From NCBI RefSeq assembly GCF_000004825.1, contig NW_008805071.1:310001-374000 (forward strand): 64,000 bases of DNA. The letters are read 5' to 3'. A program made the translations under genes and the position numbers. The notes below the pieces were generated by a model. It was not told the DNA's origin. It saw only the letters and a program-made list of their open reading frames with translations, and did not search any database. Positions 3,108-55,871 of the stretch are shown one piece after another. The stretch is from Heterostelium album PN500. Its lineage: Eukaryota; Evosea; Eumycetozoa; Acytosteliales; Acytosteliaceae. Each line of letters starts with the position of its first letter. The first letter of the stretch is position 1.

Positions 3108-4826
3108 TTACATATTTAATAAATAGTCTGCTATTTTTTGATATCCAAACGCTTGAGCTTGAGAGATAATATGTTGACCTGAAAATCCTTCAGTTCTATT
3201 CTCGTTTAGCCATTTGACGCAATTGAAGTGTCCATGAACTGCTGCTTTGTCCATAGCCAAGGTAGACGCACCTTCAGTACGATTGTTATGGAGCCATTCG
3301 ACGATGTCTAGTCGGCCAAAACCTGCTGCATCGTCAATAGCTTTTGTTGTCGCGCCTTCAGTTCGATTGTTGTGGAGCCATTGCACGATCTCGAAGTGGC
3401 CTGACGATGCTGCATTGTCCATGCAAAGCGTTGTACAACCTTCACTACGATTCTCATGGAGAAACTGCACCAGCTCCAAACTACCTTGATTGGCAGCTTC
3501 GTCCATCGCGTCGGTCGAACAACCTTCACTACGATTGGCATGCAACCATTTAACTATATTTATTCTTTTGTTGTAACAAGCACGATCCATAGCATCGGTA
3601 GAACATCCTTCGGTACGATGCTGATGTAGATATATTAGAACATCGAGGTGACCATTACTAGCGGCATAGGACATCGCTTGTTGTGTACATCCTTCACTGC
3701 GATTCTCAGTTAGGAATCGAACGATCTCCAAACTACCGAATCGTGAAGCACCATCAATTGCCAATGTAGTGCATCCCTCGCTTCTATTCTCATGAAGGAA
3801 TCGTACTACAGGGAGAAATCCATTGGATGCAGCATAGTTCATTGCTTTCACAGTGCATCCCTCTGTTCGCACCTGGTGTAGGTACTCAACGACATCGAGC
3901 AGCCCATTGCTCGCAGCAAGATCCATTGCATTTACTGTGCAAGCAGGTGTTGTATTCTCATTCAGCCACTTGACAATCGAGAGAGAATGCTTGGCGGCAC
4001 TGTCCAACTTTATAGTGAATGTATCTTGTTGTTGTTGTTGGTGCAGATTGTTACAAAACCATTTTACCATCTCTAGATTCTTTGACGCCAGTTCAAATAG
4101 ATTGGTATTCAACTTTAACTTTTCTAGGCTCTCTCTCTGTAAGAACTCTAGAACATGTAACTTATTTCCAGAGACAGCATGTATATACATGTTACTTCCT
4201 TTTCGCCATTCCGATCGGTTAGCAATTAGCCATTCAATGATCTCCATGATACCAATGGATGCAGCAATTTCGAACACCACTTTCATACGAGAAGGTACTA
4301 CTACAGTTGTTCTACCACCACCGAAAACAGTGTCAAGTCGGTCGCTGAAATGTTTGACAATCCCCAGGCTACGAGAGATCGGCGACATAATGAATACCTC
4401 TGGATAGTCCCAGTGGGCGATGTCGTTCATCGATTCCAGGTATTCAATGATTGCGAAATCAGCTACCTCCACTGCAACACCCAATAGTTTACAATCATAC
4501 ATTTGATTACCGATGAACGGTCTACTGAACATATTGAGTTCATCCACTAGATACTTTAGAACTGGTAGATGTCTTTTAGCAACTGCCTTTGTCAACAATC
4601 GCTTGAACAAGAAACTATCATATTTTAAAGTAGGGTTTCTCTTTTGGTATAACTTTAACAAATCTAAATAACCATAAGATACCAAAGTAATAGGTGACTC
4701 GTTCAAATCATTCCATCTCTTTGATTCATTACCATCGATAATTCTATTTATTAAATATACATAATTAAATATTTTTTGATTCAATATCTTATTATTAAAT
4801 ATATATATAAATAAATCTTTATTCAT
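3108..4826 (-). CDS. Ankyrin-repeat protein of the dictyostelid NRTEGC family
   Basis: A single exon of 572 codons, with the start placed at the ATG at 4826; the in-frame codon at 4853 is TTG. Residues about 1-80 form an F-box-like or helical head. The rest is 12 or more ankyrin-like units of about 33 residues with the signature NR(T/S)EGCTTxAMDxAAxxGH(L/F)E(I/V)VxFLHE. The units are regular, and those at 3250-3900 are most alike, pointing to recent internal duplication. Such proteins form large lineage-specific families in dictyostelids; their partners are unknown. It probably acts as a protein-binding scaffold. A second member of the same broad family lies at 21828-23495. Confidence 0.8.
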   Translation of the reverse strand: MNKDLFIYIFNNKILNQKIFNYVYLINRIIDGNESKRWNDLNESPITLVSYGYLDLLKLYQKRNPTLKYDSFLFKRLLTKAVAKRHLPVLKYLVDELNMFSRPFIGNQMYDCKLLGVAVEVADFAIIEYLESMNDIAHWDYPEVFIMSPISRSLGIVKHFSDRLDTVFGGGRTTVVVPSRMKVVFEIAASIGIMEIIEWLIANRSEWRKGSNMYIHAVSGNKLHVLEFLQRESLEKLKLNTNLFELASKNLEMVKWFCNNLHQQQQQDTFTIKLDSAAKHSLSIVKWLNENTTPACTVNAMDLAASNGLLDVVEYLHQVRTEGCTVKAMNYAASNGFLPVVRFLHENRSEGCTTLAIDGASRFGSLEIVRFLTENRSEGCTQQAMSYAASNGHLDVLIYLHQHRTEGCSTDAMDRACYNKRINIVKWLHANRSEGCSTDAMDEAANQGSLELVQFLHENRSEGCTTLCMDNAASSGHFEIVQWLHNNRTEGATTKAIDDAAGFGRLDIVEWLHNNRTEGASTLAMDKAAVHGHFNCVKWLNENRTEGFSGQHIISQAQAFGYQKIADYLLNM

Positions 4827-5149
4827 TTTTGTAAATATATAAAATTTGAACAACTAACTTTCTAAATTAAGATATTTCTAAAAAAGGGTTTGGTCCAAAA
4901 CCCTCGCCTCCAAAAAAGCCAAAAAAAAAAAAAAAAAAATATACTAAGTTTTTTTTTTCAAAGTTAATTTATAAATTATACATATATTATTATAATAATA
5001 TATGTATATGTGATAATTGTTATAATACAAGTTTATAACTATGTGTATTTTATTAAGATAATATTTTTTGGATTTAATTTATGAATAATGATTGATTATT
5101 ATTATTTATTTTTGGTGTGTTTGTCAGAAATGAGCTGATGAGCTGGAGC
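4827..5149. other. Intergenic, A+T-rich
   Basis: About 320 bp between two minus-strand genes. It holds a short inverted segment (GGTTTGGTCC / AAAACCCTCGCC), poly-A and poly-T tracts and an ATATGTATATG-rich stretch. It would serve as promoter of the ankyrin gene and 3' region of the desaturase. I see no other gene. Confidence 0.5.
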
Positions 5150-7425
5150 TTATTGTTGTTTTGATTTGTATTGAGCAATACGGAATTGAGATAGAAGATT
5201 TCTAGCGGCGTTGGAATGACCGTAGACATCACCCTTGAACATCTTGGTAGCATCCTTGCCAAGACCCATCTTGATGTACATTAATCCACCTGGATGTTCA
5301 TCGACGAACGACTCGACGTCGTGTACGATGTCATCGATGATGATAAGCTTACGTCCTTGGTTGTGGAACTGTTCAAACTCTTCGTGAGTCATGATCGGGA
5401 GTTGATCGACAGCAACACCCCAGTGAATGCTCTCGGTCATCTTGTTGGCCTCCTTCAACTGCATCTGTACCATACCCTTTTGGATCTCGTTCTGATCGAA
5501 AGTCTTTAGGCTGTGGGCTAGTCCGAGAATTTCGCATATCTTGATCATCCACTTGGTTGGATCGTATCCAAAGGTGGTGAAGGCGTTACGGTAGTCCGAG
5601 GGGAACTCGTGGTGGAAGTTGTGATAACCCTCACCGAATGTGAGAACGGCAGTGATGATACTGTCTCTTGGTGTGTGATTGTCGTCGTATGGCGATGTTC
5701 CGACAAAGTGAGCGAGTGAATTCACCATGAATGTAGAGTGGTGAACAAAGACGAGACGTGCGATGGCAGCGTAGAAGTAACCACCCATCCAATCACCCCA
5801 ACCCAATCCAGCGACCAAAGTTGGCAAGAGGATACCCATGAAGAAAGCGACCTTGACGTAGTTCTTGTGTTGCCACATGACCCAAGCATCTTCGTTCAAA
5901 TCTTCGATGTGAGACTTACCGATCTTCTTTGGATCCTGCTTGATGAACAACCAACCGAGATGTGACCACCAGAATCCGTGGTGTGCTGAATATGGATCCT
6001 TGTCGGTGTCGGTGTAACGGTGGTGAGCACGATGGTCACGTGACCACCAACGGCATGAACCTTCGATAGCACCGGCTCCAGCAAACAACAAGTAAACCTT
6101 GAGTGGCAACGAAGCAGAGTATGCACGATGAGCAAAGAGACGATGGTAACCAGCGGTAATACCCATACCGGTGATGTGGTAGTAGATCACTGACCATATG
6201 AATGTTGCTCTGCTGAGTGGCACTGTGAAGAAACCGATCAGAGCGATGATGGGGGTCGATGTTAGGAGGATGAAATGAATCCAGTTGATGTTGGCGAGGA
6301 ACTCAGAGACGGAACGCGATGGACGGTCAGCTGGAAGTTCTTGCTTTGGTTGCTTTGGCTTGGCGAGTGGGGTGTTGTCGAATGGCGAGAAGATTTCTTC
6401 AGAGAAAGTTTGGCTCTTGGAAATCAACTCACGGAAAAGATCCAACTCGAAAGTGCACTCGTAGATGTACTCACTCCATTGCTTCTGGAAGGAGTCGTAT
6501 GCCTTACGCAAGTTGTAATGTGGGATGGAAACGGCGATGTGACGTGGCAAAGCAAAGTTGATGTCCTTGACGACAAACTCGAACCACTTTGGATAGGTGA
6601 TGTGCACGTGGTAACGCTTGTCCTTCTCCTCCTCAAAGAATGGAATCGCTGGGAGGAAAGTAAAGGTGGAAACCAAGAAGTGGTAGATCAACCATGGAGC
6701 CAACCAGTAGTTGAGGAATCCGCTGACACCAAAGAACTTGAATACCAATGGGAAGAAAATACCGGCAAACACGTAGACCAAGACGATTGAAGTGAGTGCC
6801 TTCTTCTTGTCGTTCTTGTCTTCGACCTTCTTCAAATTGAAATAGTTCTCAGCCCAGTTGGAGATGGACAACAACCAGAAGAGCTTACCAGTGGCCCATG
6901 ATCTGATCAACGATGACTTGGACTTTGAGAGATTCATTCTTTCAGTGATCTTCCATGATTGGAATGGATAAAGCAATGGAAGCATAACAATTGTACCAAC
7001 AATTGAATTTACAAGTGGTGATTTCGAGAATGATTTATGATTACAATCATTTCCAATTACAAATAACTAAATGAAAATAATAAGGAAAAATTAATATTAT
7101 TTTGGAAAGTTTAAATTGTTTTTTGCTTTTTAGATTTACTTACACCGGTGATGGAAGCACCTCCGAGGAACCAACCAACTGGATAGAGATAGGATGGTAC
7201 TTTATTGATAAAGATGATGGAACATGCGATAAAGAAAATGGTGAGCAAGAGTGATGATGCTGATTTCAATCCACTCTTTTCGAAAACTTCCTTTGGTAAT
7301 GAAGCTACAATCTGTTCCAATGTAATAGTGTCTGGAATAGTTTTTGGTGATTTTCTGATAGTCTTGATGTTCTTGTATAAGACTGGTGGGTAGTTTTTAG
7401 TGACTGTGCCACTTCCTCTTCCCAT
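5150..7425 (-). CDS. Fusion: eroded DesA-like domain + Delta9 acyl-CoA desaturase + cytochrome b5
   Basis: Exons 7425-7144 and 7066-5150 join in phase 0 (GTAAGT donor, CATTTAG acceptor), giving about 732 residues. Residues 1-330 follow the cyanobacterial/plastid Delta12 (DesA/FAD6) fold: LPKEVFEKSG near the start, YPVGWFLGGASITGLFVIG, LLYPFQSW, PWLIYHFLVSTFTF and ITYPKWFEFVVKDIN. The catalytic histidines are lost: HDCGH reads NDCNH, the HDxHH box is replaced by TERMNLSK, and the third box is weak. Residues about 350-620 are a complete Delta9 (stearoyl-CoA) desaturase with boxes HRLFAH (402-407), HRAHH (439-443) and HNFHH (576-580). Residues about 650-732 are cytochrome b5 with HPGG (685-688) and a second haem His in VYGHSN. 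Expected activity: Delta9 desaturation of acyl-CoA in the ER, with its own electron donor. The role of the N-terminal domain is unknown. Confidence 0.88.
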
Positions 7426-9350
7426 TTTTTATTTTCTATTTTTTAAAAAAAAATAAATAATTAAATAATTAATATAAGTAATTGATTTTTCTATTACAAC
7501 AAAAAAGTTTTAAAAAATAAAAAAAGGTATTGATTTTTATTTGAAACAAAAACAATAGTAAAAAAAAGAAATCAAAAATAAAAAGTAGAGTAGGTGTGAT
7601 CTCGTTTATTCAATATTGAATCATCATTCATTACATTACACTACTTTACAGTAATTTATTTATATTATTGGTATTTTAGAGTTCATCATTAATTTATAAA
7701 TCCCAATATAAATCTGAAATAAATTTATAATGAGCACATGTTTTTAGATAAAAAGCTATGGGTTGATGGGATATCCCTAAATTTAGGTAACAAATAGGGG
7801 AGTGTGTTTTTTTTTTTTTTTTTTTTTGCTTTTTGAAAAGGATTTTGCTTTTTTTTTTCTATTTTGAACTAACTTCCATTTATCGACAAAATTGAATCCG
7901 AATATAAATTGATAGACTTTTGAATAAATAGTTTGAGGTGTGGGTGATTATTACTGATTCTTATCTATCTAAAAAAGACAAATCAATAAACCTGTGTGCT
8001 TAATAATAAACTGCTGAAATCTATAAAACAAACAATATCACAAAGATGAAGATGTATATAGGGATCTAATGAAGAAGAAAGGAAATCAACACAAAAAACA
8101 AACAAACAAAGAAATTGAATTGAATTGAATTGATTGTTGCCAATAAATAATTAATTTGTGATTTAATGTTTAAAAATCTGACACTGTCTCTCTGTTTCCG
8201 TCTCTGTTTTGTTTTTTTTATTTTGTTTTATTACATTAATATATTATATTATATTACTTACTTTTTGGTCTGGTTTATGATAATGATTTGTAAAATGAGA
8301 GTATCGCAGTATAAAGAACACTTTACTCGCAACTTCCTAGCTCTCTTCAGCAGCAATGCACCAAAAAAAAAAAAATTAAAATCAAAACAAAACAAAACAA
8401 ACAAAATAACAATAATTAAAAAATCAAGGTCCTCACTTCACACACACAACAAATCACTCTCACACAACAAAAATACATTTTCTACTCGCAGTGACCTGAC
8501 CCAATCATTCGGCACTTTCTTTCTCTTTTGGTCAAAATATTGATTACTTTTTTTTGCAACATTTAATCAGAGATATTTATTTTTAAACAATATTGCTGAA
8601 AATTTTTGTAATTCGAAAAAAAATGTAGAAAACAATGTGGTCCACAGTCATCAAAGGGTAGGTGTTTCCTATTAATTTCAATTTTTGAGCTGTAAAAATA
8701 AAGCTGGTTTTCAAGACGTACTGATGATCATTGATTGCCGACCTTTGAATTTTCTATTTACTATTTTTTGATTTTTATTTTTTGATTTTATAATTTTATG
8801 TTTTTAATGATTCATGACGAATAGAATAAAATACATGGTTTTTTTTTTTTTTGCTTTTAATGAAACTTTTGATTAAACAGTTTTATTGCACACTTCCACA
8901 CTCTAATTTATTTTTATATTGGTTGCGATTTCTTTTTTGTTTTGATTTGTTTTGATGCCAAACAACGACACATTGGTATTTGAATTCTCAAAAATCCTAC
9001 AATTTCCTTACATGCAAATACCTACCCAGAGATTCTTTTAGCGGAGATTATAACCCATGAGTAACGATAATTTCGAAATTATCATTGTTATCTATAATTG
9101 TATTACAGAAAAGGTAATCAATGACATTATAATATTAAATTTTCTTTCATCTTATTCTTCTCTTCAATTGGTAATTGATCAAGTAATTAAATCTTGATTA
9201 TTTAAAAATAATGATTTAATATATTTGTATTATTAGAAAACTCATAGACAAATTAAAAAAGCATAAAAATACAAAATAATAATTATTAAATAATGTATAT
9301 ATTATAATAGGAGTATGAATTATCTTTTTTTTTATGTTATTTTAAATTGT
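7426..9350. other. Long intergenic region, no gene found
   Basis: About 1.9 kb between the desaturase start and the CFDP1-like stop. It contains poly-T (7807-7827), a purine/ACAAAC-rich stretch near 8090-8115 and a T-rich block at 8200-8250. A 125-codon open frame at 8166-8543 has only low-complexity composition (FF, LL, KKK, NK) and no family resemblance. The 5' part is presumably the desaturase promoter. Confidence 0.5.
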
Positions 9351-12756: not shown

Positions 12757-12783
12757 ACATTGATTGGTGAGTAGTTGTATCAA

Positions 12784-12859
12784 ACCAACCAACCAACCAA
12801 CCAACCAACCAACCAACCAACCAACCAACCAACCAACCAACCAACCAACCAACCAACCA
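12784..12859. repeat. (CCAA)n microsatellite
   Basis: A pure CCAA tetranucleotide run of about 76 bp lies directly downstream of the gdap2 stop codon, probably in its 3' UTR. The remaining DNA to 13103 is A-rich with no gene visible. Confidence 0.97.
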
Positions 12860-26623: not shown

Positions 26624-28542
26624 ATGAATAATCAAACAGATAAAATAGTAAATCTATCACATTTAATATTAAATAAAATTATTAGTTATGTGTATGATAA
26701 CATTGATCGCATTTGTTTCAGTTTAGTTTGTAAGAGATGGTACAACGAAAGAGATAAATATTTAATATTCAACTCTGATCGTATCAAATTATTTGCACTT
26801 AATAGCACTGATACGAAAAAAAATCATAAACATTTCAAATTACCATCATATAATAATATCTTTAAGAAATCAATTCAATCAAAGACTGTTAGTTCACTTT
26901 TTGTTGGCGATAGAGATTATAGAAATTGCGATTATTATTTTTTTAGTAAGTATTTTAGCTCTATAAAGATCATTTTGTTTTAAAACTGACTATTTTAATA
27001 AAAGATGATATTAGAAAACTAAATAGTATTCCCAACAATGTTTCAAATATCGAAATTGGTATTGCATATGAATTATTTGAAGATGATCTGAAGTATCTCT
27101 ATCAATTAATATCAGAATCACAATCAGTAACAATGTTGAAAGGTTGTAGCACATTGAAATATGGATTACCAAAGTCAATCAAAACCATTAGATTTAGTAA
27201 TTTCAATGAACCACTTATTAAAGAATCACTTCCCAATTCAATAGAAGAGTTACTTTTCAACAGTGATTTCAAACAAGAGATTCTACCAGGTTTACTTCCA
27301 GAAGGTTTGAGTAAACTTATTATATACAGCTGTAGTAGCTACCAATATGAAATTCGACCAGGTGTACTTCCAGTTAGTTTACTTGAATTTGCTATTCATA
27401 ACTATCATTATGAAATTCACCCAGGTGTACTTCCAGCTAGTTTACTTAAATTTACTTTCAACCGCTGTCAAGGTGAAATTCGACCAGGTGCACTCCCAGA
27501 TGGTTTACTTGAATGTCATCTCAATTACTATGAATTCGAAATTAAACCGGGTGTACTTCCAAATGGATTGCTAGAATTTTCTCTTGAAAGCAATAACTAT
27601 CGATATGAAATGCAACCAGGAGTACTTCCATTGTCTCTTGAATGTTTATCTCTTAATAGTCATCCATCTGAGGATCAATTACCACCAACCCTAGGAGATC
27701 AACAATATCCGGTGGCAACATGTTTACCAATTTCATGGTTACAAGCGATATCATCACTCCCCAACCTTCAAAACCTTTATGTTTATTTTTCCTATGATGT
27801 TAATGAAGATACTATACTCAATCTCGAGTACCTCCCACCAACTCTAGAATATTTAGCATATTTATTACCAAGAACGATATTGAAAGGAACAATGCCCACA
27901 TCTTTGAAAAGCATTGACCTTGATGAGTGTCAATTTAAGATCGATGAAATATTCCCAGAAACATTACAATATCAATTGGAGATGTTTCAATATCGAAATA
28001 AGATTATACATTCAATTCCATCAAACGTAAAGATCGAAACATTATCAATGACTGGAAATTCAAGTGAACCAATGATAACTCTCCCATCAGGTGTTGAAAA
28101 CATCTATCTTTCATTAGATTGGACAAATTCAGGTGAGAAGATAATTGACTTTGGTGGAGATGGTAATACCGATCAACCATGTTCATTAAGAAAAGTGGCA
28201 TTTTCGCAATTCGACAATGGAACACCACAAGTTAAACTACCAAACACCGTCGAATTTCTAGATCTTGGTTTTAATTATCTCAATGATAATATATTACAGT
28301 GGGTACCTTCATCAGTAAAAACTCTTAAAACTCCTAAAATCAATATCACCATTCCCAATATCAAATCAATAACCAATATCATTATTGGAAATTTTATTCA
28401 TTTCCAAACTATTCGAAAGTTGGATGAAAATTATTATTTAATCTATGGTGACAATGAAAGCATAGATGATTCAGTAAACATAATTGCCAAGATATTTCAT
28501 CACTCTAAACTTGAGCAAATCTTGGGAACAAAAATAGAATAA
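26624..28542 (+). CDS. F-box and FNIP-repeat protein
   Basis: Exons 26624-26945 and 27005-28542 join across a 59-nt intron (GTAAGT...AAAAG), 619 residues. Residues about 8-45 form an F-box (VNLSHLILNKIISYVYDN, ICFSLVCKRWYNERDKYL). From about residue 170 come FNIP-type repeats of about 22 residues with the core PG(V/A)LPxxLLEF: EIRPGVLPVSLLEF, EIHPGVLPASLLKF, EIRPGALPDGLLEC, EIKPGVLPNGLLEF. FNIP proteins are a large dictyostelid-specific group thought to act as substrate receptors of SCF ubiquitin ligases. The five central repeats are so alike that they probably arose by recent tandem duplication. The promoter is squeezed against the transposon end. Confidence 0.88.
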
Positions 28543-44887: not shown

Positions 44888-45289
44888 GCTGTTGAGTGGT
44901 GAAAAGAAATCCAACTATAGTTATGGAGGCATTCCATTCCTTCTCTTTCGACAATCCTTCGTTTCTCTGACGCAAGAAACAAAAAGTGCAAGATGATTCA
45001 TTGGATAACCATATCAAGAAGTACAGTTCCAGTTCTGACTGAATTGTGCGAAACTTAATATTTGTATTCCAAAGAAAATCTTGAAACAAGATGTCATCTT
45101 TTTGGTGCTGGATTACATCAACTCCCAACCTGAAGAACAGCTAGGATCAACTTTACATACTGTTTTTTCTCAACTCGATAACATTAAAGAACTCTGCAAA
45201 AAATAAAAAAAAATAATATCAAATATTTATTTAAATTTTATTAAATTATGTCTTTAGCTTTGATTATTATTAGTTGTTGAATACACAAA

Positions 45290-46022
45290 AGGCAACCAGC
45301 ATAACGACGAGAGGCAACCGGTAAAGTAACGAAGAGGAAACCGGCATAGCAACGAGAGGCAACCCTCATAGTAACGAGACAACCAGCATAACGACGAGAG
45401 GAAACCGGCATAGTGACGAGAGGAAACTGGCATAACTACGAGAGGAAACCGGCATAACGACGAGAGGAAACCGGCATAGTGACGAGAGGAAACCGGCATA
45501 GTGACGAGAGTCAACTGGCATAACTACGAGTGGAAACCGGCATAACGACTAGAGGAAACCGGTATAGTGACGAGAGGAACCGGCATAACTACGAGAGGAA
45601 ACCGGTATAGTGACGAGAGACAACCGGCATAACTACGAGTGGAAACCGGCATAACGACTAGAGGAAACCAGCATAACGACGAGAGGAAACCAGCATAGCT
45701 ACGAGAGGAAACTGGCATAACGACGAGCTGCAACTGGCATAACTACGAGAGGAAACCGGCATAGTAGCGAGAAGCAACCGGCATAGCAACGAGAGACAAC
45801 CGGCATAACGACGAGACAACCGGCATAGTGACGAGAGGCAACCGGCATAGTGACGAGAGGCAACCGGCATAACTACGAGAGGCAACCGGCATAACTACGA
45901 GAGGAAACCGGCATAACGACTAGAGGAAACTGGCATAACGACGAGAGGAAACCGGCATGGTAATGAGAGGCAACCGGAATAGCAACGAGGCATCACTCAT
46001 AGTAAGGAGGCAACAGGCATGG
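45290..46022. repeat. Minisatellite A, 22-bp unit GAGAGGAAACCGGCATAACGAC
   Basis: Roughly 33 imperfect units; variants carry GTGAC, CTAC or AGCAAC at the end. Minus-strand frames translate as repeats of MPVSSRHYAGFLSSLC in all registers, because 22 is not a multiple of 3; I do not regard them as genes. It directly abuts the left inverted arm. Confidence 0.95.
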
Positions 46023-46034
46023 TAAAGAGGACTT

Positions 46035-46469
46035 GGAAAAGAAGAAAGAGATAAAAAGAGATAAACAAGAGTTAGTAAAACAAAGATATAAATAAGTTAA
46101 AGTTATAATTAATAGTTATTACTTACAAAATTATTTGTATTTGAAAAATAATGAAAAATGACATTGTGAATGAAATTATAGGTTTAAATAGTTTTAAATT
46201 TGATTCGTTTACTTACAGTTTGAACTCAAAATTGGCGGCAACAGTTAAGCGCCAATTAAAAGTATGAATTAATATTCAAATTTGAAATATAAATATTAAA
46301 ATTAATTAAATAATTCATTTTATTATAATATAATACTCAAAAATAAAAAAAACAGGCGATCATTACCAATGAAGAAACAACAAGCTTAATTTTCAATTTT
46401 ATTATTTTATTGAATTTGCAACACCCCACTTTTATTTGACAAGTTCATCTTTTTTTTTGTTGCAAAAAT
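46035..46469 (+). repeat. Left arm of a long inverted repeat (about 435 bp)
   Basis: Matches the complement of 53698-54150 almost base for base, with about ten small differences, mostly in A/T runs. Landmarks: GAGTTAGTAAAACAAAGATA at the outer end, AAAATTGGCGGCAACAGTTA in the middle, GCGATCATTACCAATGAAGA and CAACACCCCACTTTTATTTG at the inner side. There is no open frame of note. Confidence 0.95.
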
Positions 46470-47190
46470 TATTAAAATTAATTAAAATTTTAATTTTTGA
46501 AAGATATGATTAATAATAAAGATACAATAAGATATTCTATATGTTATAAATATCTCTTTCATTTATAAAAAGAATAGATATTAGATTCTTTTTAAAATAT
46601 CTAAAATCATTATTTTCATTAATTTATAATATATTAAATTTAAATAGGTTGAATGGTTTCACTTCACTGTTATAATTAAATTAAATCAGTTATTTCCGAA
46701 TTAAGTTCTTAAATACTCAGACATCAAATAAAATTATTAAAGTTTTTATAATAAACATTTAGACAATAAAATACAACTACCAACTGATCAACAACAACAA
46801 ATAATTTCATCAACACCTCATTACCAGAAATATTTCATAAATTTGAGGTTGATGATGTTGTTGGATTAGTGGTAGTAGAATGACATTTGCTACTTCTGCT
46901 CCTGGTCAAGTAATTTAACATTTATGAGTGTTTGGATTCAACAAAATTACTATTTCAAAAAAATTTTAAACTACCATTATATTTATATTTTGATTTTATT
47001 TTATCGATTTGTGAAACTGATGGTAAGGAGTAGATGAGCAGATGGACATTGAGAGTGGTGAGTTCATCGGTAACCGAGTTATGGAGTTGATGGGAATTGA
47101 GTTGTAGAGTTGATCGAAACTAAGATATGTAGTTGAGGTAAGTATCAATAGTATCTGAGTTGTGGAGTTAACGGAAACTCTGGCTTCGGG
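46470..47190. other. Non-coding DNA inside the inverted repeat
   Basis: About 720 bp of A+T-rich DNA with a short Gln-coding-like piece (46770-46900, CAACAACAACAAATAATTTC) that has stops in all frames. No gene seen. Confidence 0.4.
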
Positions 47191-47194
47191 CAAC

Positions 47195-48130
47195 TAAGTA
47201 TGGCAATTGAGTCAACTGAGTCAACTGAGTCATCAACTCAGTCCAGTTACTGAGTTAACTAAGTCAGACCGGTATCTAAGTGGAATCAACTGAGTCTGGT
47301 AACTAACTAAGTCCGGTAACTCATAATTCAGTCGGTAACTGATTCAACTAAGTCATCAACTGAGTCCGGTAACTGAGTCAACTAAGTTCATTAACTAACT
47401 GAGTCCGGTAAATCAGTCAGGTAACTGAGTTAGGTAACTGAGTCAGGTAACTCTGTCAGGTAACTCTGTCTGGTAACTGAGTCCGGTAACTAATTCAATC
47501 TGGTAACTGAGTTTGGAAACTAACTGAGTCCGGTAACTCAGTCTGGTAACTCAGTCTGGTAACTGAGTTCGGTAACTGAGACCGGTAACTCAGTCAGGTA
47601 ACTGAGACCGGTAACTGAGACAGGTAACTGAGTCAGGTAACTCAGTCCGGTAACTCAGTCTGGTAACTCAGTCAGGTAACTCAGTCTGGTAACTCAGTCA
47701 GGTAACTGAGTCCGGTAACTGAGACAGGTAACTGAGTCAGGTAACTCAGTCCGGTAACTCAGTCTGGTAACTCAGTCTGGTAACTCAGTCTGGTAACTCA
47801 GTCTGGTAACTCAGTCTGGTAACTAACTAAGTCAGGTAACTGAGTCAGGTAACTAAGTCAGGTAACTGAGTCAGGTAACTCAGTCTGGTAACTGAGTCAG
47901 GTAACTGAGTCAGGTAACTCAGTCTGGTAACTGAGTCAGGTAACTGAGTCAGGTAACTAAGTCCGGTAACTGAGTCAGGTAACTGAGTCCGGTAACTCAG
48001 TCCGGTAACTCAGTCTGGTAACTCAGTCCGGTAACTCAGTCAGGTAACTGAGTCCGGTAACTGAGTTAACTAAGTCAACTTACTCAGTCCGGTGACTAAC
48101 TCAATCCGGTAACTCAGTCCAGCAACTAAG
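47195..48130. repeat. Minisatellite C, 14-bp unit GGTAACTGAGTC(A/C)
   Basis: About 65 imperfect units, with CAGTC alternating with GAGTC and frequent C/T exchange. The unit contains the near-palindrome ACTGAGT/ACTCAGT, and neighbouring units can pair with each other. It is entirely non-coding. Confidence 0.95.
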
Positions 48131-48408
48131 TGGAATCAACTTTGTTAAAAGAATAATTAAAGAATTTGAAAGATATCAACTTTTTATTTAAAATTTGGTT
48201 GATTGATATTGTTGTTTTAAGTTTTAATTTATGAGTGTGGGGTGTGTATTATGTTATCAACAAGGAAATAAGTAGTATTATTATTAATAAAAGTAGAAGT
48301 AGGTGAAGAAAACAATGTTGTTATTATTATTATTAGCTACATGTTTGTTATATATTGATTGATTGATTGATTGACAATGTTAACTTAATTTTATGTTAAT
48401 CTTCTCAT

Positions 48409-49080
48409 TTATTTCTTTGGAGAGGTTGCAGCAGCTTCCTTCTCTTCATCTTTCTCCTTTTCGACTTCATCTACCAACTATTCGACTTCGGATTCCTTGA
48501 ACAATTTAATTGGTTCATTTCATTTATTGATAGCAATTTCAATATTCTTAATTCCTGATTCTACAACCTATTTATTTGTTAATATCACAATAGTATTAAT
48601 AATAATAATAGTTAGTCATAGTTGTTTACTATATTTATAGTAATAAATGAATAATATATTATTACCTCAAGCAATGCTCTAACAGCCAATTTAATTGAAG
48701 CAGTATCACTCTCATCTGTAAAGTTCTTCTCTAAAAATTCACTGACAGTCTTTGAGTTACGTCCGATGGCGGCTGCCTGTTCCTTCAATGAACCGGGTGA
48801 TCTGTTTGAAAAAGTTTTGGTGTACCGTCTGAATCGAAACCGACAATCAATGTAGAAATACCGAATGGTCTAACACCACCACTTTGTGTATCTCTATAAC
48901 AATTGTTTAAAATTCATTAAATTAGTATCAATATTTAACTCGATCGCTATAATCTTTTTGTTTTGTTCAAAGTATATTTACTTGTTGAATTCCAGCGATA
49001 TATTTAGAGATATTCTACAGATGGTACACCATCCAATGATAATCTATATGATTGACACTCAACAAGAGCCTATAATAAAA
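48409..49080 (-). pseudogene. psmA7: Decayed proteasome alpha-7 (PSMA7/alpha4) gene copy, introns retained
   Basis: Minus-strand pieces spell the C-terminal two thirds of the alpha4 core-particle subunit: ALVECQSYRLSLDGVPSVEY, KYIAGIQQ, an intron, [20 protein letters not shown] then [12 protein letters not shown], a frame change, [30 protein letters not shown], an intron, GIKNIEIAIN, then EKEKDEEKEAAATSPKK and a stop. Defects: one-base changes after EYL and after LFQTD, and two in-frame stops (after AIN, and within SEVE-stop-LVDEV). Splice-like boundaries remain, so this was a DNA-level duplication, not a reverse-transcribed copy. The N-terminal exon is not seen. A functional copy must exist elsewhere. 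Confidence 0.88.
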
Positions 49081-49084
49081 TCTA

Positions 49085-49491
49085 AATAGATATTAAATAT
49101 ATAAAAATGTATAAATGTGTTAATGCTAATTAATTAGTTAGAGTAAAGTATTTATAAATAATGATGATAATGATGATTATTATTATTATGTTTCATAAAT
49201 GATATTAAACTTACCTTATTATATCTAAATAGTGTTAATTAAAAATATATATAAATATGAATAAATAGATTGATTGTTACTTTAATTAAAAAATTAATTA
49301 TGTGTGTGTTTGACTTTGGTGAAAAAAAAAAAAGTGAAAAAAAAAAAAAGTGAAAAAAAAATTTTGAGTTGTGCTGTGTGGTGAGTGTGGGTGTGAGTAT
49401 GAGTGTGGTGGGTGAAGTGTGGGTGATCCAAGATCAAAGTTAACATCGATCGATCGAAAGCTGCAAAGATTAAAATTTAGACTCTCTCAGC
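49085..49491. other. Non-coding, with poly-A and GTG-rich tracts
   Basis: About 400 bp: A+T-rich to 49310, then runs of GTGAAAAAAAAA units (49318-49360), then a GTG/GTGAGTGTGG-rich stretch to 49425 and a GATC-rich patch (CATCGATCGATCGAAAGC). No coding frame. Confidence 0.45.
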
Positions 49492-49584
49492 CTCATGGAT
49501 CGATAAGAAAATATTTTTTAATTTTAAACATATTTTACTATATAAAAAAAAAAAAAAAAATTTTAAATCTTATCGATCCATGAG
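49492..49584. repeat. 16-bp perfect inverted repeat around a poly-A loop
   Basis: CTCATGGATCGATAAG at 49492-49507 is complementary to 49569-49584. The 61-bp loop is A+T-rich and contains an A17 run. It marks the sharp border where base composition switches to G+C-rich. Confidence 0.9.
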
Positions 49585-50175
49585 TTTCCGGTGCCAACCA
49601 CGTGGAGGTGGAGTCTACTGGCACCTAGAGACCCCGATGGATTTATTGCCACAAACCATCGGCAGCATCTTTAATTGTTGTTGTTCCTGATCGACAGCGG
49701 AGTTAGAAGCCGAAGCAAATAAAACAACTTCGAAGAGGCAACAAAGAAAGTGATAGCTGTGGCGTTGCCTTCTGTACAGAGATTGTCGCCTCCATCTGCT
49801 CTGTGTCGCCACACCCGAAGATGCGACAGACTAGCAGCGTATGTATCACCTGCTTTCAGACTATATGAAGCCGTAACATGTGTTGGAGGTTTCCCTACCC
49901 TTGACCCAGTGCCATGCATCCTGTAGATCAACACAGAGGTTACCATGTGCAAGACCACCTGCAAGCAAGTGCGCTCATCCCAGCTTCGTCCGTCCACAGG
50001 CAACCGCTCACAACAATCTCCCCAACTGGCGGGTCGGGTGTACAGGTCGCCAGGTTTCTCTAATAACTAGGCTCTCATCAGAGGGTTCACTGATCGAGAC
50101 ATGCCGTCACGCTTGATAAGAGAGGCAAGGATCACAAGCAATGACACCCAGTTATCCCAGACCCTGGAAAGAAAA
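49585..50175. other. G+C-rich island, structured but with no recognisable gene
   Basis: About 590 bp with near-balanced composition. It opens with a strong hairpin-forming stretch (GGTGCCAACCACGTGGAGG ... CTACTGGCACC). Minus-strand frames of 65-110 codons exist (49671-50003) but show unusual Arg/His/Trp composition unlike local proteins. It could be an inserted foreign or RNA-coding segment. Confidence 0.45.
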
Positions 50176-50518
50176 AAAAAAGGACGAACCCATTGAAATG
50201 GATCACTTGGAATAGCTTGATTGTTATATTGGAAAATAGAATAAATAAAAAACAAAGTAGTCAGTTGTTAGTATTAATTAATGATATAAACAAATAATAA
50301 ATAAATAAATAAAGAACGAATACAAGAATAATTAAAATTAAATATAAATAAAACGAATATATTTATAAAATTAATTTATAATTATATTTATCCATTTATA
50401 TTTAATTTCAATCATATTTGTATTCGTTCCTAAATTATTTGATAGACCTACAAAAAAAACCTAGAGCTTCGTTAACCTGAATTTTACTTTATATTATTTA
50501 AATATAGAAAACAGATAT

Positions 50519-50739
50519 GATATTAATAAATAAACAACATTGTAAATAAATAATAAAAATAAATTTATAATAATATATTACCTTTTCAAAGATCCTTCGG
50601 CCGTGCCCACCCTGCCACCCATGCATCGACCAGTACCACCATATAGCCAAGACCATGACCAAAGAACCAGACTCTTTTAACATTGATCTACTTTTTACTT
50701 ATAATATACCAATATAATATTAATAAATAAACAACATTG

Positions 50740-50771
<32 letters not shown>

Positions 50772-50840
50772 ATATTACCATAACAAATATCCTTCGATCG
50801 TGCCCACCCTGCCACCCATGCATCGACCAGTACCACCAAA
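50519..50840. repeat. Direct duplication of about 125 bp
   Basis: 50519-50643 and 50716-50840 share ATAAACAACATTGTAAATAA, then ATCCTTCG(G/A)(C/T)CGTGCCCACC and CATGCATCGACCAGTACCAC, with an expanded TAAA run in the second copy. A minus-strand frame in the first copy (WWYWSMHGWQGGHGRRIFEK) followed by a GTAATA donor may be a former exon. Confidence 0.85.
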
Positions 50841-50888
50841 CCCAGAACCTAGAATCCAGATCACCATTCCATCCTGTTATTATAATTA

Positions 50889-52028
50889 TTATTTACTTTT
50901 ATTACTGGTTATTCTGAATTGGTAGGTATTATTATTTGGTTTTGGTTTGTTTTTGATATTGTTAATAATGTTTAAAATGTAATTGGCAGTGTTGTCAATG
51001 TTGGTGTTGATTTTGATGATTTTGTTGTCGTTGTTCTCTTTCCAATTAGTTGGTCTTCTAAATTGGAAGGTATTTTGGTTTGGTTTTGATCTGTCAATGA
51101 TTTTTATTTTGTAGTTTTGAATATAATATTTAATATTATGAATGTAATCAATTTTGTTTATATTGTTGTTATTTATATTGTAATCTATTTTATTTTGATT
51201 AACTGGAATTCTAAATTGATAGGTATTTTGATTTCCTATTGATTTAGTGTTATTGTTGTTGTTTTTCTTATACTTTATATTATCGTTATCATTGTTATTG
51301 TTGTTCTTTATAGTTGGTTGTTGCTGTTGCTGTTGCTGCTGTTCCTGTTGCTGCTGTTCCTGCTGTTGCTGCTGTTGCTGTTCCTGTTGTTGCTGTTGCT
51401 GCTGTTGCTGCTGTTGCTGTTCCTGTTGTTGCTGTTGCTGTTGTTGCTGTTGCTGTTGTTGCTGTTGCTGTTGTTGCTGTTGCTGTTGTTGCTGTTCCTG
51501 CTGTTCCTGTTGTTGCTGTTCCTGCTGTTGTTGCTGTTGCTGTTGTAATTGCTGTTGTTGCTGTTGTTGTTGTTGTTGTTGTAAATGCTGTTGTTGCTGT
51601 TGTTGTTGTTGTAATTGCTGTTGTTGATTTTGTTCTCTGGCTATTCTAGATCTTTCTTTGGAAAAGTACAAAAGGAACAGATTTCGATCTGACTCATCTT
51701 TAATCTCGAGTTTCTTTTGGTTGTAAACTGTTACTAAATCCAGTGATAAACTTGTGACTGGAAAGCTTTGGATAACTTCCTCCAGCGACTTATAATTAAC
51801 AATATTATTATCTTGTTGTGGTTGTTGTTGTTTGTGTTGCTGCTGTTGTTCATCGAATTCCCTTTTGACTCGAGTGAATTCATGGATAAAGTAATAAAAG
51901 AAACTCATTTGATCTTCTTCATCATCGAGCTCAGCCTTCTTTTTGAAATAAACACCAACTAATTCCCACGAATAGCTGGTAATTGGAAAATTATCTATCT
52001 TATCTTGAAGTTGTTGTGACATATGCAT
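50889..52028 (-). CDS. Polyglutamine protein with a tandemly duplicated N-terminal module
   Basis: A single exon of 379 residues from an ATG at 52028. Residues 7-60 and 82-133 are two copies of a helical module: FPITSYSWELVGVYFKKKAE...FFYYFIHEFTRVKRE and FPVTSLSLDLVTVYNQKKLE...LFLLYFSKERSRIARE. A Gln run of about 100 residues (51318-51623; CAA/CAG mixed, some Glu) follows, then Asn-rich sequence in which a box N(Q/N)NT(Y/F)QFR(I/R)P occurs three times, the last at the C-terminus. I know no domain with these features. It lies inside the region bounded by the long inverted repeat. The frame is uninterrupted, which argues for a functional gene. Confidence 0.72.
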   Translation of the reverse strand: MHMSQQLQDKIDNFPITSYSWELVGVYFKKKAELDDEEDQMSFFYYFIHEFTRVKREFDEQQQQHKQQQPQQDNNIVNYKSLEEVIQSFPVTSLSLDLVTVYNQKKLEIKDESDRNLFLLYFSKERSRIAREQNQQQQLQQQQQQQQHLQQQQQQQQQQQLQQQQQQQQEQQQQEQQEQQQQQQQQQQQQQQQQQQQQQQQQEQQQQQQQQQQQQEQQQQQQQEQQQQEQQQQQQQQPTIKNNNNNDNDNIKYKKNNNNNTKSIGNQNTYQFRIPVNQNKIDYNINNNNINKIDYIHNIKYYIQNYKIKIIDRSKPNQNTFQFRRPTNWKENNDNKIIKINTNIDNTANYILNIINNIKNKPKPNNNTYQFRITSNKSK

Positions 52029-53697
52029 GATTTATTTAATTTATAAAAATAATGAAATATATTTATGAGAGTGTATATTGATTATGATGTAAAAAAGATT
52101 TAAAAGCTAATATCTAAATTTATAATATCTATATATGTATATTTATGTAATTTAAGAATACTAATTTATTTGGAAATTTTTCACCCATTATATTTTTTAA
52201 TTTTTTTTTTTTTCTCAATACAGTATTGTTTTTGATTGTATTGGGACATTGATATGATACTGATATTATTTCTTTTGTTTATTCAAAAGGTTTCACTAAT
52301 CACTAGTAGTGATTGAACACTTTCAATTGTATAAGTGGCAAAACAACAATTTTATGACAATAATTGAAAACTATCAATAATAAAATGAAAAAGTAAATAA
52401 AAAAAAAGATAAGTTCTTTAATTGAAATTAAAATTAATTTATTTCTTATTTTTAAATGAAGAGAGTAAATGAGAAATCAACTATCTCTTTATTATTATCA
52501 ATGATCACTATCTAAAACTATATTTGATAGAAATTTGAAAGAAATATGTTAGTTTTGATCAATATTTTTCTTGAAAATATTGTGATATTAATAAAACTTA
52601 CTTAGAAATAACAAATTAATATGAATATTGCTTATATTGAAAAGCAAAATTTCGATATTAATAGTATTTACTAATATATTATTATTTAAATTAGATTTAA
52701 AAATAATCAATAATAATAAGAAACCGCCAAATTTTGAAATAATTAACGTCATTTTATCCGATGCTCTCAATTAAATAGAATAATATAATAAAAAGATGTC
52801 TTAAATTTAAAAGTTTGGTTGATGTTTTTTTGATTGGCAAAAAGAATAAAAATAAAAAAACACACAATCAGTGCAGAACACCCACACTTGACATTGTCAT
52901 TCAATTCCAATAAATCGTGAATCAAATCAATTAAATTGTGTTTCACTTTTAAATAAACAAACAAATATAATTTATTTAGATTTATTTTGGTAATATATTT
53001 ATCTCAACATAAAAGAAAGATTACTATATTATTTAAATATTTTATTCAATGAATACAACAAGTTGATATTTAAAATTAAAACAAAGTAATTTTTACTTAA
53101 AACTTTCAATTTTTTATTTATAATCAATTTATTTATTTGTTAAAAGTATAAAAGATAATTTATTTAATTCTTAGTTTAAAAAAATTAAATAAAAAAAAAC
53201 TAGAAAATAATCAAAATAAAAGTGTACATTCCTTTGATTTTCATTAATTTAATATTTCACCTTAACTCAACTTAAAAAAATAACAAACTAATAGTAATCT
53301 TAAGATGAGTGTGATAATAGAAATATCTTGATAATCATAATAATAATATAATACAGATAAGAAAAAAGTTTAATCGTTCAACTTGGTTTTATTCAATTGA
53401 AGAGTACAAACTATCAATACTTACAATTTTGGAAGTACGAATTATCAATATGCTATGAAAGAGATGTTTAGAATGATGAATAAGTTGAACACTTTAATCT
53501 AACTATACAATTCAATTTGAAATTTTCATTTTATAGTAAATCACTTCTATTCTAGTACTATTGTAATTATTGTTTTCACGAATCAATCCATTACTATTAC
53601 ACAATAGAATCATCTTACAATTTAAATATTTAATTATATACTACAATAATAATATTCTTCAATTATTATATTTAACAAAAAACAACAATATTATAGT
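52029..53697. other. Gene-free A+T-rich DNA
   Basis: About 1.67 kb, including the promoter of the polyglutamine gene. Only short frames with Ile/Leu/Asn/Phe composition occur (52588-52964). There is a small palindrome AATCACTAGTAGTGATT near 52298. I see no gene, RNA or element. Confidence 0.5.
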
Positions 53698-54150
53698 ATT
53701 TTTGCAACAAAAAAAAAAAAGATGAACTTGTCAAATAAAAGTGGGGTGTTGCAAATTCAATAAATTAATAAAATTGAAAATTAAGCTTGTTGTTTCTTCA
53801 TTGGTAATGATCGCCTGTTTTTTTTATTTTTGAGTATTATATTAAAATAAAATGAATTTTAATTAATTTTAATATTTATATTTCAAATTTGAATATTAAT
53901 TCATACTTTTAATTGGCGCTTAACAGTTGCCGCCAATTTTGAGTTCAAACTGTAAGTAAACGAATCAAATTTAAAACTATTTAAACCTATAATTTCATTC
54001 ACAATGTCATTTTTCAATATTTTTCAAATACAAATAATTTTGTAAGTAATAACTATTAATTATAACTTTAACTTATTTATATCTTTGTTTTACTAACTCT
54101 TTATTTTATCTATTTTAATCTCTTTCTTCTTTATCTCTTCTAATCTCTGT
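53698..54150 (-). repeat. Right arm of the long inverted repeat
   Basis: Inverted partner of 46035-46469. The inner end starts TTTGCAACAAAAA and GATGAACTTGTCAAATAAAA; the outer end finishes in ATCTTTGTTTTACTAACTCT and a CT-rich tract. Small differences include an indel in TTAATTAA(AT)AATTC and different A-run lengths. Confidence 0.95.
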
Positions 54151-54159
54151 CTCTCTCTT

Positions 54160-55265
54160 TGTCTACCATCTCTCGGTTCATACAACCTCTGTCGGTCCAT
54201 TCCTGTTTGCCTACCATCTATGTCATTGCCTACAATCTCTGTCATTGCTCACAACCTCTGTCCTTCCATCCTCTATCATTGCTCACCATCTCTGTCCGTC
54301 CATACAATCTCTGTCATTGCCTACAACCTTTGTCCGGCCACCCAACCTCTATCATTGCTCTCTATCTATGTCATTGCCTACAAACTCTGTCATTCCTCAC
54401 AACCTCTGTCATTTTCTCTGTCATTGCCTACCATCTCTGTCCGTCCACCCTCTGTCATTCCTCACAATATCATTGCCTACCACCTCTGTCATTATCTCTG
54501 CTATTGCTCACAATCTCTGTCCGTCCACCCACCCTCTGTAATTGCCTACAATCTCTATCATTGCCTACCACCTCTGTCATTCCTCACCATCTCTGCCGTC
54601 CACCCTCTGTCATTGCCCACAATCTCTATCATTGCCTACCACCTCTGTCATTCCTCACCATCTCTGTCCGTCCACCCACCCTCTGTAATTGCCTACAATC
54701 TCTATCATTGCCTACCACCTCTGTCATTCCTCACCATCTCTGCCGTCCACCCTCTATCATTGCCCTACCACCTCTGTCATTCCTCACCATCTCTGCCGTC
54801 CACCCTCTGTCATTGCCCACAATCTCTGTCATTTCCTCTGTAATCGCCTACAATCTCTGTCCGTCCATCTCCCATCCAATCTCTATCATTGCCTACAACC
54901 TCTGTCATTCCTCACAATCTATGTTCGTCCACCCACCCTATGTCATTGCCAAAACCTCTGTCATTGCTCACCATCTCTGTCCGTCCTTTCAACCTCTGTC
55001 ATTGCCTACCATCTCTGTCCATCCATCCAATCTCTGTCATTACCCACAACTTCTGTCCGTCCAACCAATCTCTGTCATTGTCTACAATCTATGTCATTGC
55101 CTACTATCTTTTTCCGTCCGTCCAACCTATGTCATTGCCTACAATCTATGTCATTGCTCACCATCTATGTCCGTCAATCCAATCTCTATCATTGCCGCAA
55201 CCTATGTCATTGCCTACAACCTCTGTCCGTCCACCCAATCTCTGTCTGCTCCTTCAATCATTGTC
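54160..55265. repeat. Minisatellite B, 19-bp unit CTCTGTCATTGCCTACAAC
   Basis: Nearly 60 imperfect units, with variants CCGTCCACC, CCTCACCAT and CCTACCAC. All three plus-strand frames stay open for up to 369 codons (ISVIAYNLCPS-type repeats) because 19 is not a multiple of 3 and the unit lacks stops, so I do not call them genes. It directly abuts the right inverted arm on its outer side. Confidence 0.95.
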
Positions 55266-55670
55266 TAAGTTTAACTCATTTAAAAACCAGATATCTGTTT
55301 TTTTCAATTTGCTGATTATATTCTTTAAATAAAAGATTAACAATATATAGTTAAAAAATAAAATTAATAAATTTGAATGTTGAGATTAAAAATAAAATAC
55401 TCGTATCTCAAATTGTAAATGATTTTAATATTAACAAATTTATTTTATATTGTTAATCTTTCTTTTCTATCAATAATTTATATTATTGTTGTTTTTTTAT
55501 TTGAGCAAGCTGTTCTTACAATTGATATAATAATTGTTGTTTGGAATGGTGATCGAATTTTTGTGTGCAGGTGCTTACTACTAACAAGTGTTGAATCTTT
55601 TGTCCTGTGTCATTGCTGATCTCACTGAAATGGCTCTACTGTAAATATTGAGATCGTTGTTTGTTGATTA

Positions 55671-55871
55671 TTAAGTTGATGCTGATGATGATGATGAGTT
55701 AATGATTTGAAACATCGCCAAGTTTTTTTCTTGTAACACCGAGAGGATTGCTTCATGAGTGTCGACCTGTTGCTTTTGCATCAGTGCAGCTATCGCATCG
55801 GCCTCTTCTCCAACTACTCAAAGTTTATTCAATAACAACACTGCATGTTTAGTTGTGATATCTTTTTTGAA
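55671..55871 (-). pseudogene. Fragment of an unidentified gene
   Basis: The minus strand reads FKKDITTKHAVLLLNKL, a TGA, then VVGEEADAIAALMQKQQVDT, HEAILSVLQEKNLAMFQIIN, a Ser run and TAA. The helix-rich, charged composition is clearly protein-like, but a stop splits it and no start is visible. The rest of 55266-56164 is A+T-rich and holds an (AT)n run near 55931-55952; no other gene seen. Confidence 0.45.

What the first reader, a model, noticed from the sequence alone, without database searches (positions are those of the whole stretch)
45290..55265. 10-kb structure: two about 435-bp inverted arms, each bordered outside by a different minisatellite
46035-46469 and 53698-54150 are nearly identical in inverted orientation, 7.2 kb apart. 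Directly outside the left arm is a 22-bp-unit array, and outside the right arm a 19-bp-unit array; a 14-bp-unit array lies inside. The arms look very young, yet the flanking arrays differ. A large terminal-inverted-repeat element that has captured host sequence (Pack-MULE-like), or two recent insertions of one repeat family that prefers minisatellites, would both explain it. No transposase is visible inside, so it would be non-autonomous.
Basis: seen in the sequence. Interest (0 to 1): 0.75.

Follow-up and report, generated by a model that had tools for sequence, protein, structure and literature searches.

The report
Minisatellite-armed inverted-repeat element carrying a ribozyme
The 10-kb structure is one of about a dozen related copies, in what is probably a social amoeba's genome, of a large inverted-repeat element whose arms carry short tandem repeats, and its most conserved part looks like a self-cleaving RNA, which is unusual for an element in which no transposase or reverse transcriptase of its own was recognised.

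Summary
In detail: two 97% identical inverted arms (46031-46469, 53698-54132), a 22-bp array left, a 19-bp array right, a 13-bp array inside. It is neither artefact nor two insertions: the genome has 8 inverted arm pairs 6.2-8.3 kb apart, plus single arms and fragments. Seven pairs share one core (mostly 85-98% per piece); the eighth, C12a, shares only an edge piece. The arrays belong to the element, not to its target. The layout matches Foldback-type elements, but no sharp end, target duplication or transposase of its own was found. The core has (i) a Q-rich 377-aa frame with signs of purifying selection, (ii) a captured proteasome-gene fragment in 4 copies, and (iii) a 0.7-kb block, 98-99% identical in 8 copies, with 2.8% variable columns against 11-25% beside it. 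Best reading: an old Foldback-like mobile family with a ribozyme; how it moves is unknown.

The parts
45208..45289 (+). Remnant of the 'A' flank that other copies carry outside the 22-bp array (outer boundary approximate)
   Evidence: 53 bp at 94% to C12b, similar tail in C7a, C17, C28, C25
45290..46030 (+). 22-bp minisatellite array (unit like AGGAAACCGGCATAACGACGAG), outer part of the left inverted repeat
46031..46469 (+). Left arm (inner part of the inverted repeat)
46470..47332 (+). Core segment next to the left arm, shared by the copies (about 93% identity in 200-bp steps up to 47235)
47333..48114 (+). 13-bp minisatellite array (TAACTCAGTCAGG) inside the core; 13-bp arrays also in C3, C7a, C7b, C9, C11, C12b, C25, C28
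48212..49221 (-). Captured, broken fragment of a proteasome alpha gene, apparently with introns; present in 4 copies (C10, C11, C25, C28), likely parent at C11:469.3-470.4 kb
49479..49625 (-). HDV-like ribozyme candidate: P1 7 bp, P2 6 bp, P3 3 bp, P1.1 2 bp, 17-bp P4 with AT-rich loop; predicted cleavage 5' of 49625
49626..50190 (-). GC-rich non-coding block, 98-99% identical in 8 copies; no coding signature; on its own does not fold better than shuffles
50492..50838 (+). Two copies of a 150-nt repeat (197-bp spacing); arrays of about 200-bp period, 2.4-3.6 copies, in C7a, C7b, C9, C11
50889..52022 (-). Q-rich 377-aa reading frame with two ~50-aa N-terminal modules and repeated NTYQFR motifs; long frame also in 6 other copies (C3 lacks its first codons, C25 is shorter), broken in C9
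53698..54132 (-). Right arm, inverted copy of the left arm
54150..55227 (+). 19-bp minisatellite array (TTGCCTACCATCTCTGTCA) outside the right arm; detected by the program from 54207
55265..55711 (+). 'C' flank, decayed homology (about 62-92% by piece) with flanks of C11, C3, C28 and C3:103 kb; outer boundary not sharp

Best explanation
The structure is a full copy of an old, low-copy family of large inverted-repeat elements with the layout of Foldback-type DNA elements: outer flank, tandem-repeat zone (22-bp and/or 19-bp arrays), inner arm (435 bp), core of about 7 kb, and the same in reverse. Shown: copies at many places with different surrounding DNA, one shared core in 7 of 8 pairs, arrays tied to the arms, arms more alike within than between elements, the core in both orientations, a protein frame with signs of selection, and a much more conserved non-coding block with an HDV-like ribozyme fold. 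Inferred: the element spread as mobile DNA, the Q-rich protein acts for the element (perhaps by binding its repeats), and the ribozyme trims an element RNA on the strand of the Q-rich gene, 1,263 nt past its stop codon. How it moved is not known; it may have used an enzyme in trans or an RNA route.
For: Genome search: 27 arm matches, among them 8 inverted pairs; shared core in C10, C7a, C7b, C9, C11, C12b, C28, and in C3 and C25, each lacking one arm. In the flanks fetched (about 2-9 kb a side) DNA shared between loci fades within about 2.4 kb of the arrays, apart from isolated 100-bp bins. Arrays go with the family. The core lies with its 13-bp array towards flank A in 2 (C10, C25) and away from it in 5 (C7a, C7b, C28, C12b, C17; in C17 judged from the other end of the core) of 7 copies with a recognisable A flank: inversion between arms. 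Arms within an element 98.1%, between elements 96.4%. Q-rich frame: dN/dS 0.22-0.42 in the 9 of 21 pairs with dS above 0.3. Block 49626-50190: 16 of 565 columns vary against 116 of 585, 27 of 239, 115 of 910 and 48 of 194 in other core DNA. Ribozyme: Rfam RF02682 27.9 bits, motif in 8 of 8 cores that have the block, descriptor 1 hit in the window, 0 in 10 Markov-resampled windows and 0 in 400 resamplings of the segment. The published Foldback element Tetris has the same flank / tandem repeats / inner / middle order and no transposase was found for it (passages of PMC4079207).
Against: No crisp outer end and no target-site duplication in the copies examined. Three kinds of outer flank (A, B, C), A and B not inverted copies of each other, linked by a common 3.5-3.9 kb spacer in C12b and C28, fit a plain Foldback badly. 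No transposase was recognised: Pfam on 13 of the 27 frames of 60 aa or more in or overlapping the window's element found only a weak proteasome match at E 0.01 or less; 63 frames of 80 aa or more in 8 copies were judged by eye only; a broken DDE_Tnp_4 remnant lies in C12a, whose core is otherwise different, and C12b holds an inserted Ty3-type retrotransposon. The Q-rich frame is no more conserved in its bases than non-coding core (75 of 390 columns vary), and dN/dS reaches 0.78 in close pairs. The Rfam score is below the threshold of 44 bits; no covariation is seen (0 pairs with changes on both sides); the GC-rich body folds no better than shuffles (z -0.83). The descriptor was written after seeing the hit.
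Confidence: 0.5

Rival explanations
1. A fixed family of functional host loci, kept alike by gene conversion. In the strongest form these are inverted-repeat centromere cores, one main locus per chromosome.
For: The centre of the loci is the most alike (98-99%) and outer flanks fade (C flank about 62-92%) instead of ending sharply. The 8 full-length GC-rich blocks lie on 7 contigs. A paper reports DIRS-1, which may serve at D. discoideum centromeres, missing from the assembled P. pallidum, and supposes other ways of organising centromeres in most species (passage of PMC5006619).
Against: Two copies with both arms and the block lie 73 kb apart on one contig, C7. The window's locus is short and next to an Arb2-domain gene. 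A protein gene and a ribozyme are not expected in a centromere core. Chromosome assignment of the contigs, chromosome number and the species are not established here.
Confidence: 0.12
2. Chromosomal remains of a nuclear plasmid of the 2-micron/Ddp2 kind, a circle with two inverted repeats that flip its halves, integrated and broken at different points.
For: C12b and C28 show flank A and flank B joined by one common spacer, as in a circle or head-to-tail array; the core occurs in both orientations relative to A (2 against 5). D. discoideum has nuclear plasmids and the 2-micron plasmid has two inverted repeats (passages of PMC11962162).
Against: In the spacer I recognised no plasmid gene, only a broken zf-C3HC/NuBaID gene copy and a piece of a retrotransposon end. 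No replication or recombinase gene was recognised among frames of 130 aa or more (by eye). No circular form was tested. That Ddp2 plasmids have inverted repeats is recalled, not tested.
Confidence: 0.12
3. Pack-MULE or other classical TIR transposon with ordinary short-TSD insertion, the arrays being chance growths.
For: Long inverted repeats and a captured host gene fragment, apparently with introns.
Against: Core shared in 7 of 8 pairs; 22-bp array on 18 of 21 arms; no MULE transposase recognised; no TSD found.
Confidence: 0.08
4. Assembly artefact (false inversion).
For: Repeats this long can collapse or invert in assemblies; the ends of contigs C17 and C4 carry the same piece of an element.
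Against: The same inverted layout recurs at 8 loci, with different flanks and with sequence differences among arms.
Confidence: 0.02

Closest known systems
Foldback-type elements (Drosophila FB, Galileo, Tetris)
   Same: Long inverted repeats made of an outer flank, a zone of tandem repeats of variable number and an inner part, round a middle domain; few complete copies; transposase not found for Tetris (passages of PMC4079207; Galileo from the listing).
   Different: Outer flanks are of three kinds and not always inverted copies; no target-site duplication seen; a protein frame and a ribozyme-like block in the core; the host is not an animal or plant.
Pack-MULE
   Same: Inverted-repeat element with a captured host gene fragment.
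   Different: One shared core in 7 of 8 pairs rather than different cargo; no MULE transposase or 9-bp duplication found (these MULE features are recalled).
HDV-like ribozymes of R2, L1Tc and other non-LTR retrotransposons
   Same: Nested double pseudoknot with P1, P1.1, P2, P3, P4 and a C in the joining strand (R2: passages of PMC3774820; L1Tc from the listing).
   Different: No reverse transcriptase of its own recognised; the ribozyme lies downstream of the only gene, not at the 5' end of an RT-coding RNA.
2-micron and Ddp2-type nuclear plasmids
   Same: Two inverted repeats whose recombination flips a segment.
   Different: Copies are chromosomal; no replication or recombinase gene recognised; circular form not shown.

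Membership tests
Foldback-type DNA element | Long inverted repeats that contain internal tandem repeats round a middle domain | tested here: met
Foldback-type DNA element | Dispersed copies with the same architecture at unrelated sites | tested here: met
Foldback-type DNA element | Outer ends inverted and defined, with target-site duplication | tested here: inconclusive
   C3 and C11 have decayed inverted C flank on both sides (88% over 69 nt; 76% over 151 nt) but no crisp end or duplication was found; A and B differ from each other
Foldback-type DNA element | Autonomous relative with transposase | tested here: inconclusive
   Only a DDE_Tnp_4 remnant within C12a; its 9 other matches in the genome do not lie at arm matches
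Pack-MULE | Different captured cargo between the same inverted repeats | tested here: not met
   shared core in 7 of 8 pairs, C12a differing; the same proteasome fragment in 4 copies
Pack-MULE | 9-bp target-site duplication | tested here: inconclusive
   ends not definable
HDV-like ribozyme | Nested double pseudoknot P1/P2/P3/P1.1 with GG after P1' and C in J4/2 | tested here: met
   all pairs of P1, P2, P3, P1.1 standard in 8 of 8 copies
HDV-like ribozyme | Score above the Rfam gathering threshold | tested here: not met
   27.9 against 44 bits; 27.9-28.2 bits in 6 of 7 loci given
HDV-like ribozyme | Compensatory changes in the helices | tested here: inconclusive
   0 pairs changed on both sides; the 8 copies are too alike to tell
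HDV-like ribozyme | Self-cleavage in vitro | not testable with these tools
   needs an assay
Nuclear plasmid (2-micron/Ddp2 kind) | Circular autonomous form with a replication or recombinase gene | not tested
   no reads available; no such gene recognised by eye among frames listed
Inverted-repeat centromere | One locus per chromosome, CenH3-bound | not testable with these tools
   two copies with block and both arms on contig C7 speak against

The most novel reading that the evidence does not exclude
These loci are a selfish genetic element of a new type: inverted-repeat DNA that carries its own repeat-binding protein and an RNA whose end is made by an HDV-like ribozyme, and that keeps its dispersed copies alike by conversion rather than by a transposase or reverse transcriptase. 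In the boldest form, the inverted-repeat loci serve as the unknown centromeres of this dictyostelid.
Probability: 0.12. Interest if true: 0.85.

Novelty: new variant of a known kind. Interest (0 to 1): 0.5.

Why it matters
The Foldback-type elements named in the passages I saw are from animals and plants, and Tetris has no conserved gene (PMC4079207); here is a family in a probable social amoeba whose core has kept a gene and a block more conserved than the gene. If the ribozyme is active, it would be an HDV-like ribozyme in a DNA-type element without a reverse transcriptase of its own; searches of the held library for 'HDV-like ribozyme' with Polysphondylium and with Dictyostelium found 0 papers each. 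The family also gives a natural test of arm-driven inversion, minisatellite growth and gene capture in one genome, and its link to centromeres can be tested directly.

Tried and rejected
Rejected: independent insertions into minisatellites. Rejected: the 131-aa frame in the GC-rich block as a protein; its 15 variable sites fall 5/4/6 on codon positions 1/2/3 and Pfam finds nothing. No known RNA family explains the GC-rich block: at gathering thresholds the window has only a tRNA-Leu at 30261, and at E up to 10 the stretch 49300-50500 gave 5 weak matches, of which the HDV one was followed. No exact match of a ribozyme pattern in viral contigs or of one 24-nt block motif in prokaryote genomes. 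Plasmid records: 25 with a weak match, the 20 listed all within query 3-77 of 751, outside most of the GC-rich block. A structure model of the Q-rich N-terminus without an alignment failed (mean pLDDT 48), so no fold search was made. The search for target-site duplications and sharp ends at flanks A, B and C led nowhere. The DDE_Tnp_4 remnant in C12a was followed: 10 matches from 13 candidates, none but itself at an arm match. One search was a listing only; I saw no chromosome number for the species. The RNA model R1 was built but never used, see below.
Full report
Setting. The window is G000:C10:310001-374000 of a 32.9-Mb assembly in 39 contigs. N- and Q-rich proteins and a FNIP-repeat protein suggest a dictyostelid; the size recalls Polysphondylium (Heterostelium) pallidum, but that name comes from recall and no call tests it.

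Check of the observation. The arms, the 22-bp array on the left, the 19-bp array on the right and an inner array are there. The inner unit is 13 bp. The arms are 97% identical.

Family. A search with the left arm gave 27 matches from 25 scored candidates; the tool calls counts of repeats lower bounds. Eight inverted pairs stand 6.2-8.3 kb apart, on 6 contigs: C10 (the window), C7 twice (550 and 623 kb, here C7a and C7b), C9, C11, C12 at 734 kb (C12a, decayed) and at 1364-1373 kb (C12b), and C28. C12b and C28 have an extra arm each; C3 lacks the right arm, C25 the left; C17 has a partial arm near the contig end, and the start of C4 repeats the end of C17 (99.7% over 352 nt); C14, C27, C7:622 kb and C7:1.7 Mb have fragments. 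With long arrays masked, the core of the window matches C3, C7a, C7b, C9, C11, C12b, C28, C25 and part of C17 at about 80-99% per piece, mostly 85-98%. C12a shares only the arms and a short edge piece; its centre holds other sequence with a broken DDE_Tnp_4 frame. C12b has a Ty3-type retrotransposon in its core. So the copies are one element, not arms with varied cargo, with C12a the exception.

Arrays. Of 21 arms looked at have the 22-bp array directly outside, pointing the same way relative to the arm; C10 right, C11 left and C12a right have the 19-bp array there, and C11 right and the outermost arm of C28 have first the 22-bp and then the 19-bp array. A genome pattern search for the 22-bp unit gave 312 matches with at most one mismatch and 0 for the reversed control; 100 were listed, 98 of them at element loci and 2 at C3:93.3 kb; the other 212 were not listed. 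The 19-bp pattern gave 29 matches, all at C10, C11, C12a and C28. The arrays are thus part of the element.

Outside the arrays. Flanks are of three kinds. A and B are shared by several copies, at about 83-97% for pieces over 100 nt; C by C10, C11, C28, C3 and C3:103 kb at about 62-92%. In C12b and C28, A and B are joined by one common spacer with a broken copy of a zf-C3HC/NuBaID gene, whose likely parent lies at C28:326.6-328.1 kb (89%). Homology ends at different points in different copies; I found no sharp end and no target-site duplication. In the flanks fetched, shared DNA fades within about 2.4 kb of the arrays, apart from isolated 100-bp bins (the detailed list was cut by the output limit). 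The core lies in both orientations relative to A (13-bp array towards A in 2 of 7, away from it in 5 of 7, one of these judged from its other end), which speaks for inversion between the arms.

Arms. Within an element the arms are 96.2-100% alike (7 pairs, mean 98.1%), between elements 94.1-98.4% (84 pairs, mean 96.4%). In the tree the two arms of C9, C10, C7a and C11 pair up (4 of 7); those of C12b fall together with its third arm; those of C7b and C28 do not pair. This fits arm-to-arm conversion, so the likeness of the arms does not date the insertion.

Gene. On the minus strand, 52022-50889 encodes 377 aa with two ~50-aa modules, a Q-rich middle and repeated NTYQFR motifs. A long frame is open in 6 other copies (255-403 aa); in C3 the first codons are missing, in C9 the frame is broken. 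Over 145 of 411 codon columns (gapped and Q-majority columns dropped) dN/dS was 0.22-0.78 in 20 pairs, one further pair having dS 0; in the 9 pairs with dS above 0.3 it was 0.22-0.42. Against strong constraint: 75 of 390 columns of its N-terminal part vary, as many as in non-coding core. Pfam gives no match above a curated cut-off, and all 14 matches of the N-terminal modules in the genome lie in element copies, at the C4 contig start or in a relic at C3:1423.8 kb. Ten further frames of 60 aa or more of the window's element had no Pfam match at E up to 0.01.

Captured gene. 48212-49221 is 91% identical over 1,059 nt (93% over 701 nt of it) to a proteasome alpha gene at C11:469.3-470.4 kb; the likeness runs through the apparent introns; the likely parent has longer frames, the copy is broken. 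Within the family it was found in C10, C11, C25 and C28 (5 of 5 candidates with the parent).

Conserved block. 49560-50220 is 98-99% identical in the 7 other copies that have it whole. Over 49626-50190 16 of 565 columns vary; elsewhere in non-coding core 27 of 239, 48 of 194, 115 of 910 and 116 of 585. Variable sites show no codon pattern. Alone it folds at -188 kcal/mol on the minus strand, no better than 100 shuffles (z -0.83); the plus strand gives z +1.07. The longer stretch with the ribozyme gave z -3.66 against 20 shuffles, probably owing to the long P4 hairpin.

Ribozyme. Rfam's HDV-F-prausnitzii model matches 49625-49561 minus with 27.9 bits, E 0.0077 for 1.2 kb, below the gathering score of 44; of the 7 other copies given it matched 6, at 27.9-28.2 bits and E 0.38-0.45 (C12b missed). 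A fuller fold than the model's alignment is: P1 GGUGCCA/UGGCACC, P2 AGACUC/GAGUCU, P3 ACC/GGU with L3 UCCACGU, P1.1 CC/GG, a 17-bp P4 with an AT-rich loop, and GCUGAGA as the joining strand with a C in the catalytic place (the consensus is recalled and was compared with passages on R2 ribozymes, PMC3774820). All pairs of P1, P2, P3 and P1.1 are present and unchanged in 8 of 8 copies; P4 varies at three pairs, one a G-U, two unpaired in one copy each; there is no covariation. A descriptor with these features, written after the fact, finds this one place in both strands of the window, none in 10 Markov-resampled windows and none in 400 resamplings of the segment. Since the whole GC-rich block is conserved, the invariance of the ribozyme does not by itself single it out. 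Being on the strand of the Q-rich gene, cleavage would fall 1,263 nt past its stop codon; whether one transcript spans both is unknown.

Interpretation. The order flank, tandem repeats, inner arm, middle is that of Foldback elements such as Tetris (passages of PMC4079207) and this is the reading I hold most likely (0.5). It is not filed as a proven member, since defined ends, target-site duplication and a transposase source stay inconclusive. Rivals are a conversion-homogenised host locus, including a centromere (0.12), plasmid remains (0.12), and a classical Pack-MULE (0.08).

Noticed in passing
window 12783-12859: Perfect 4-bp repeat AACC, 19 copies, 100% matches.
   Followed up: no
window 27339-27630: 63-bp tandem repeat, 4.5 copies; its unit looks by eye like a coding FNIP-type repeat, not tested.
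   Followed up: no
L019 (C12:1363401-1373300), about 4738-8395: Ty3-type retrotransposon with integrase and RNase H domains inside the core of C12b; a 113-bp end piece is listed at 23 places besides the spacer that was searched with (40 of 72 candidates scored), two of them being its own ends.
   Followed up: partly
G000:C28:324300-328055: Two neighbouring copies of a NuBaID/zf-C3HC gene region, likely parents of the fragment in the A-B spacer.
   Followed up: partly
L023 (C12:731000-740900), 5700-8260: Relic core with a DDE_Tnp_4 (PIF/Harbinger-like) fragment; near relatives (81-88%) only at C5:911.7 kb and C3:117 kb.
   Followed up: partly
C17 end (1301413) and C4 start: Both contig ends carry the same 352 bp of an element copy, so C17 and C4 may be neighbours on one chromosome, or share a collapsed copy.
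   Followed up: no
G000:C3:90-104 kb: Scattered pieces of the A-B spacer, two 22-bp units and a C flank: probably another decayed copy.
   Followed up: partly
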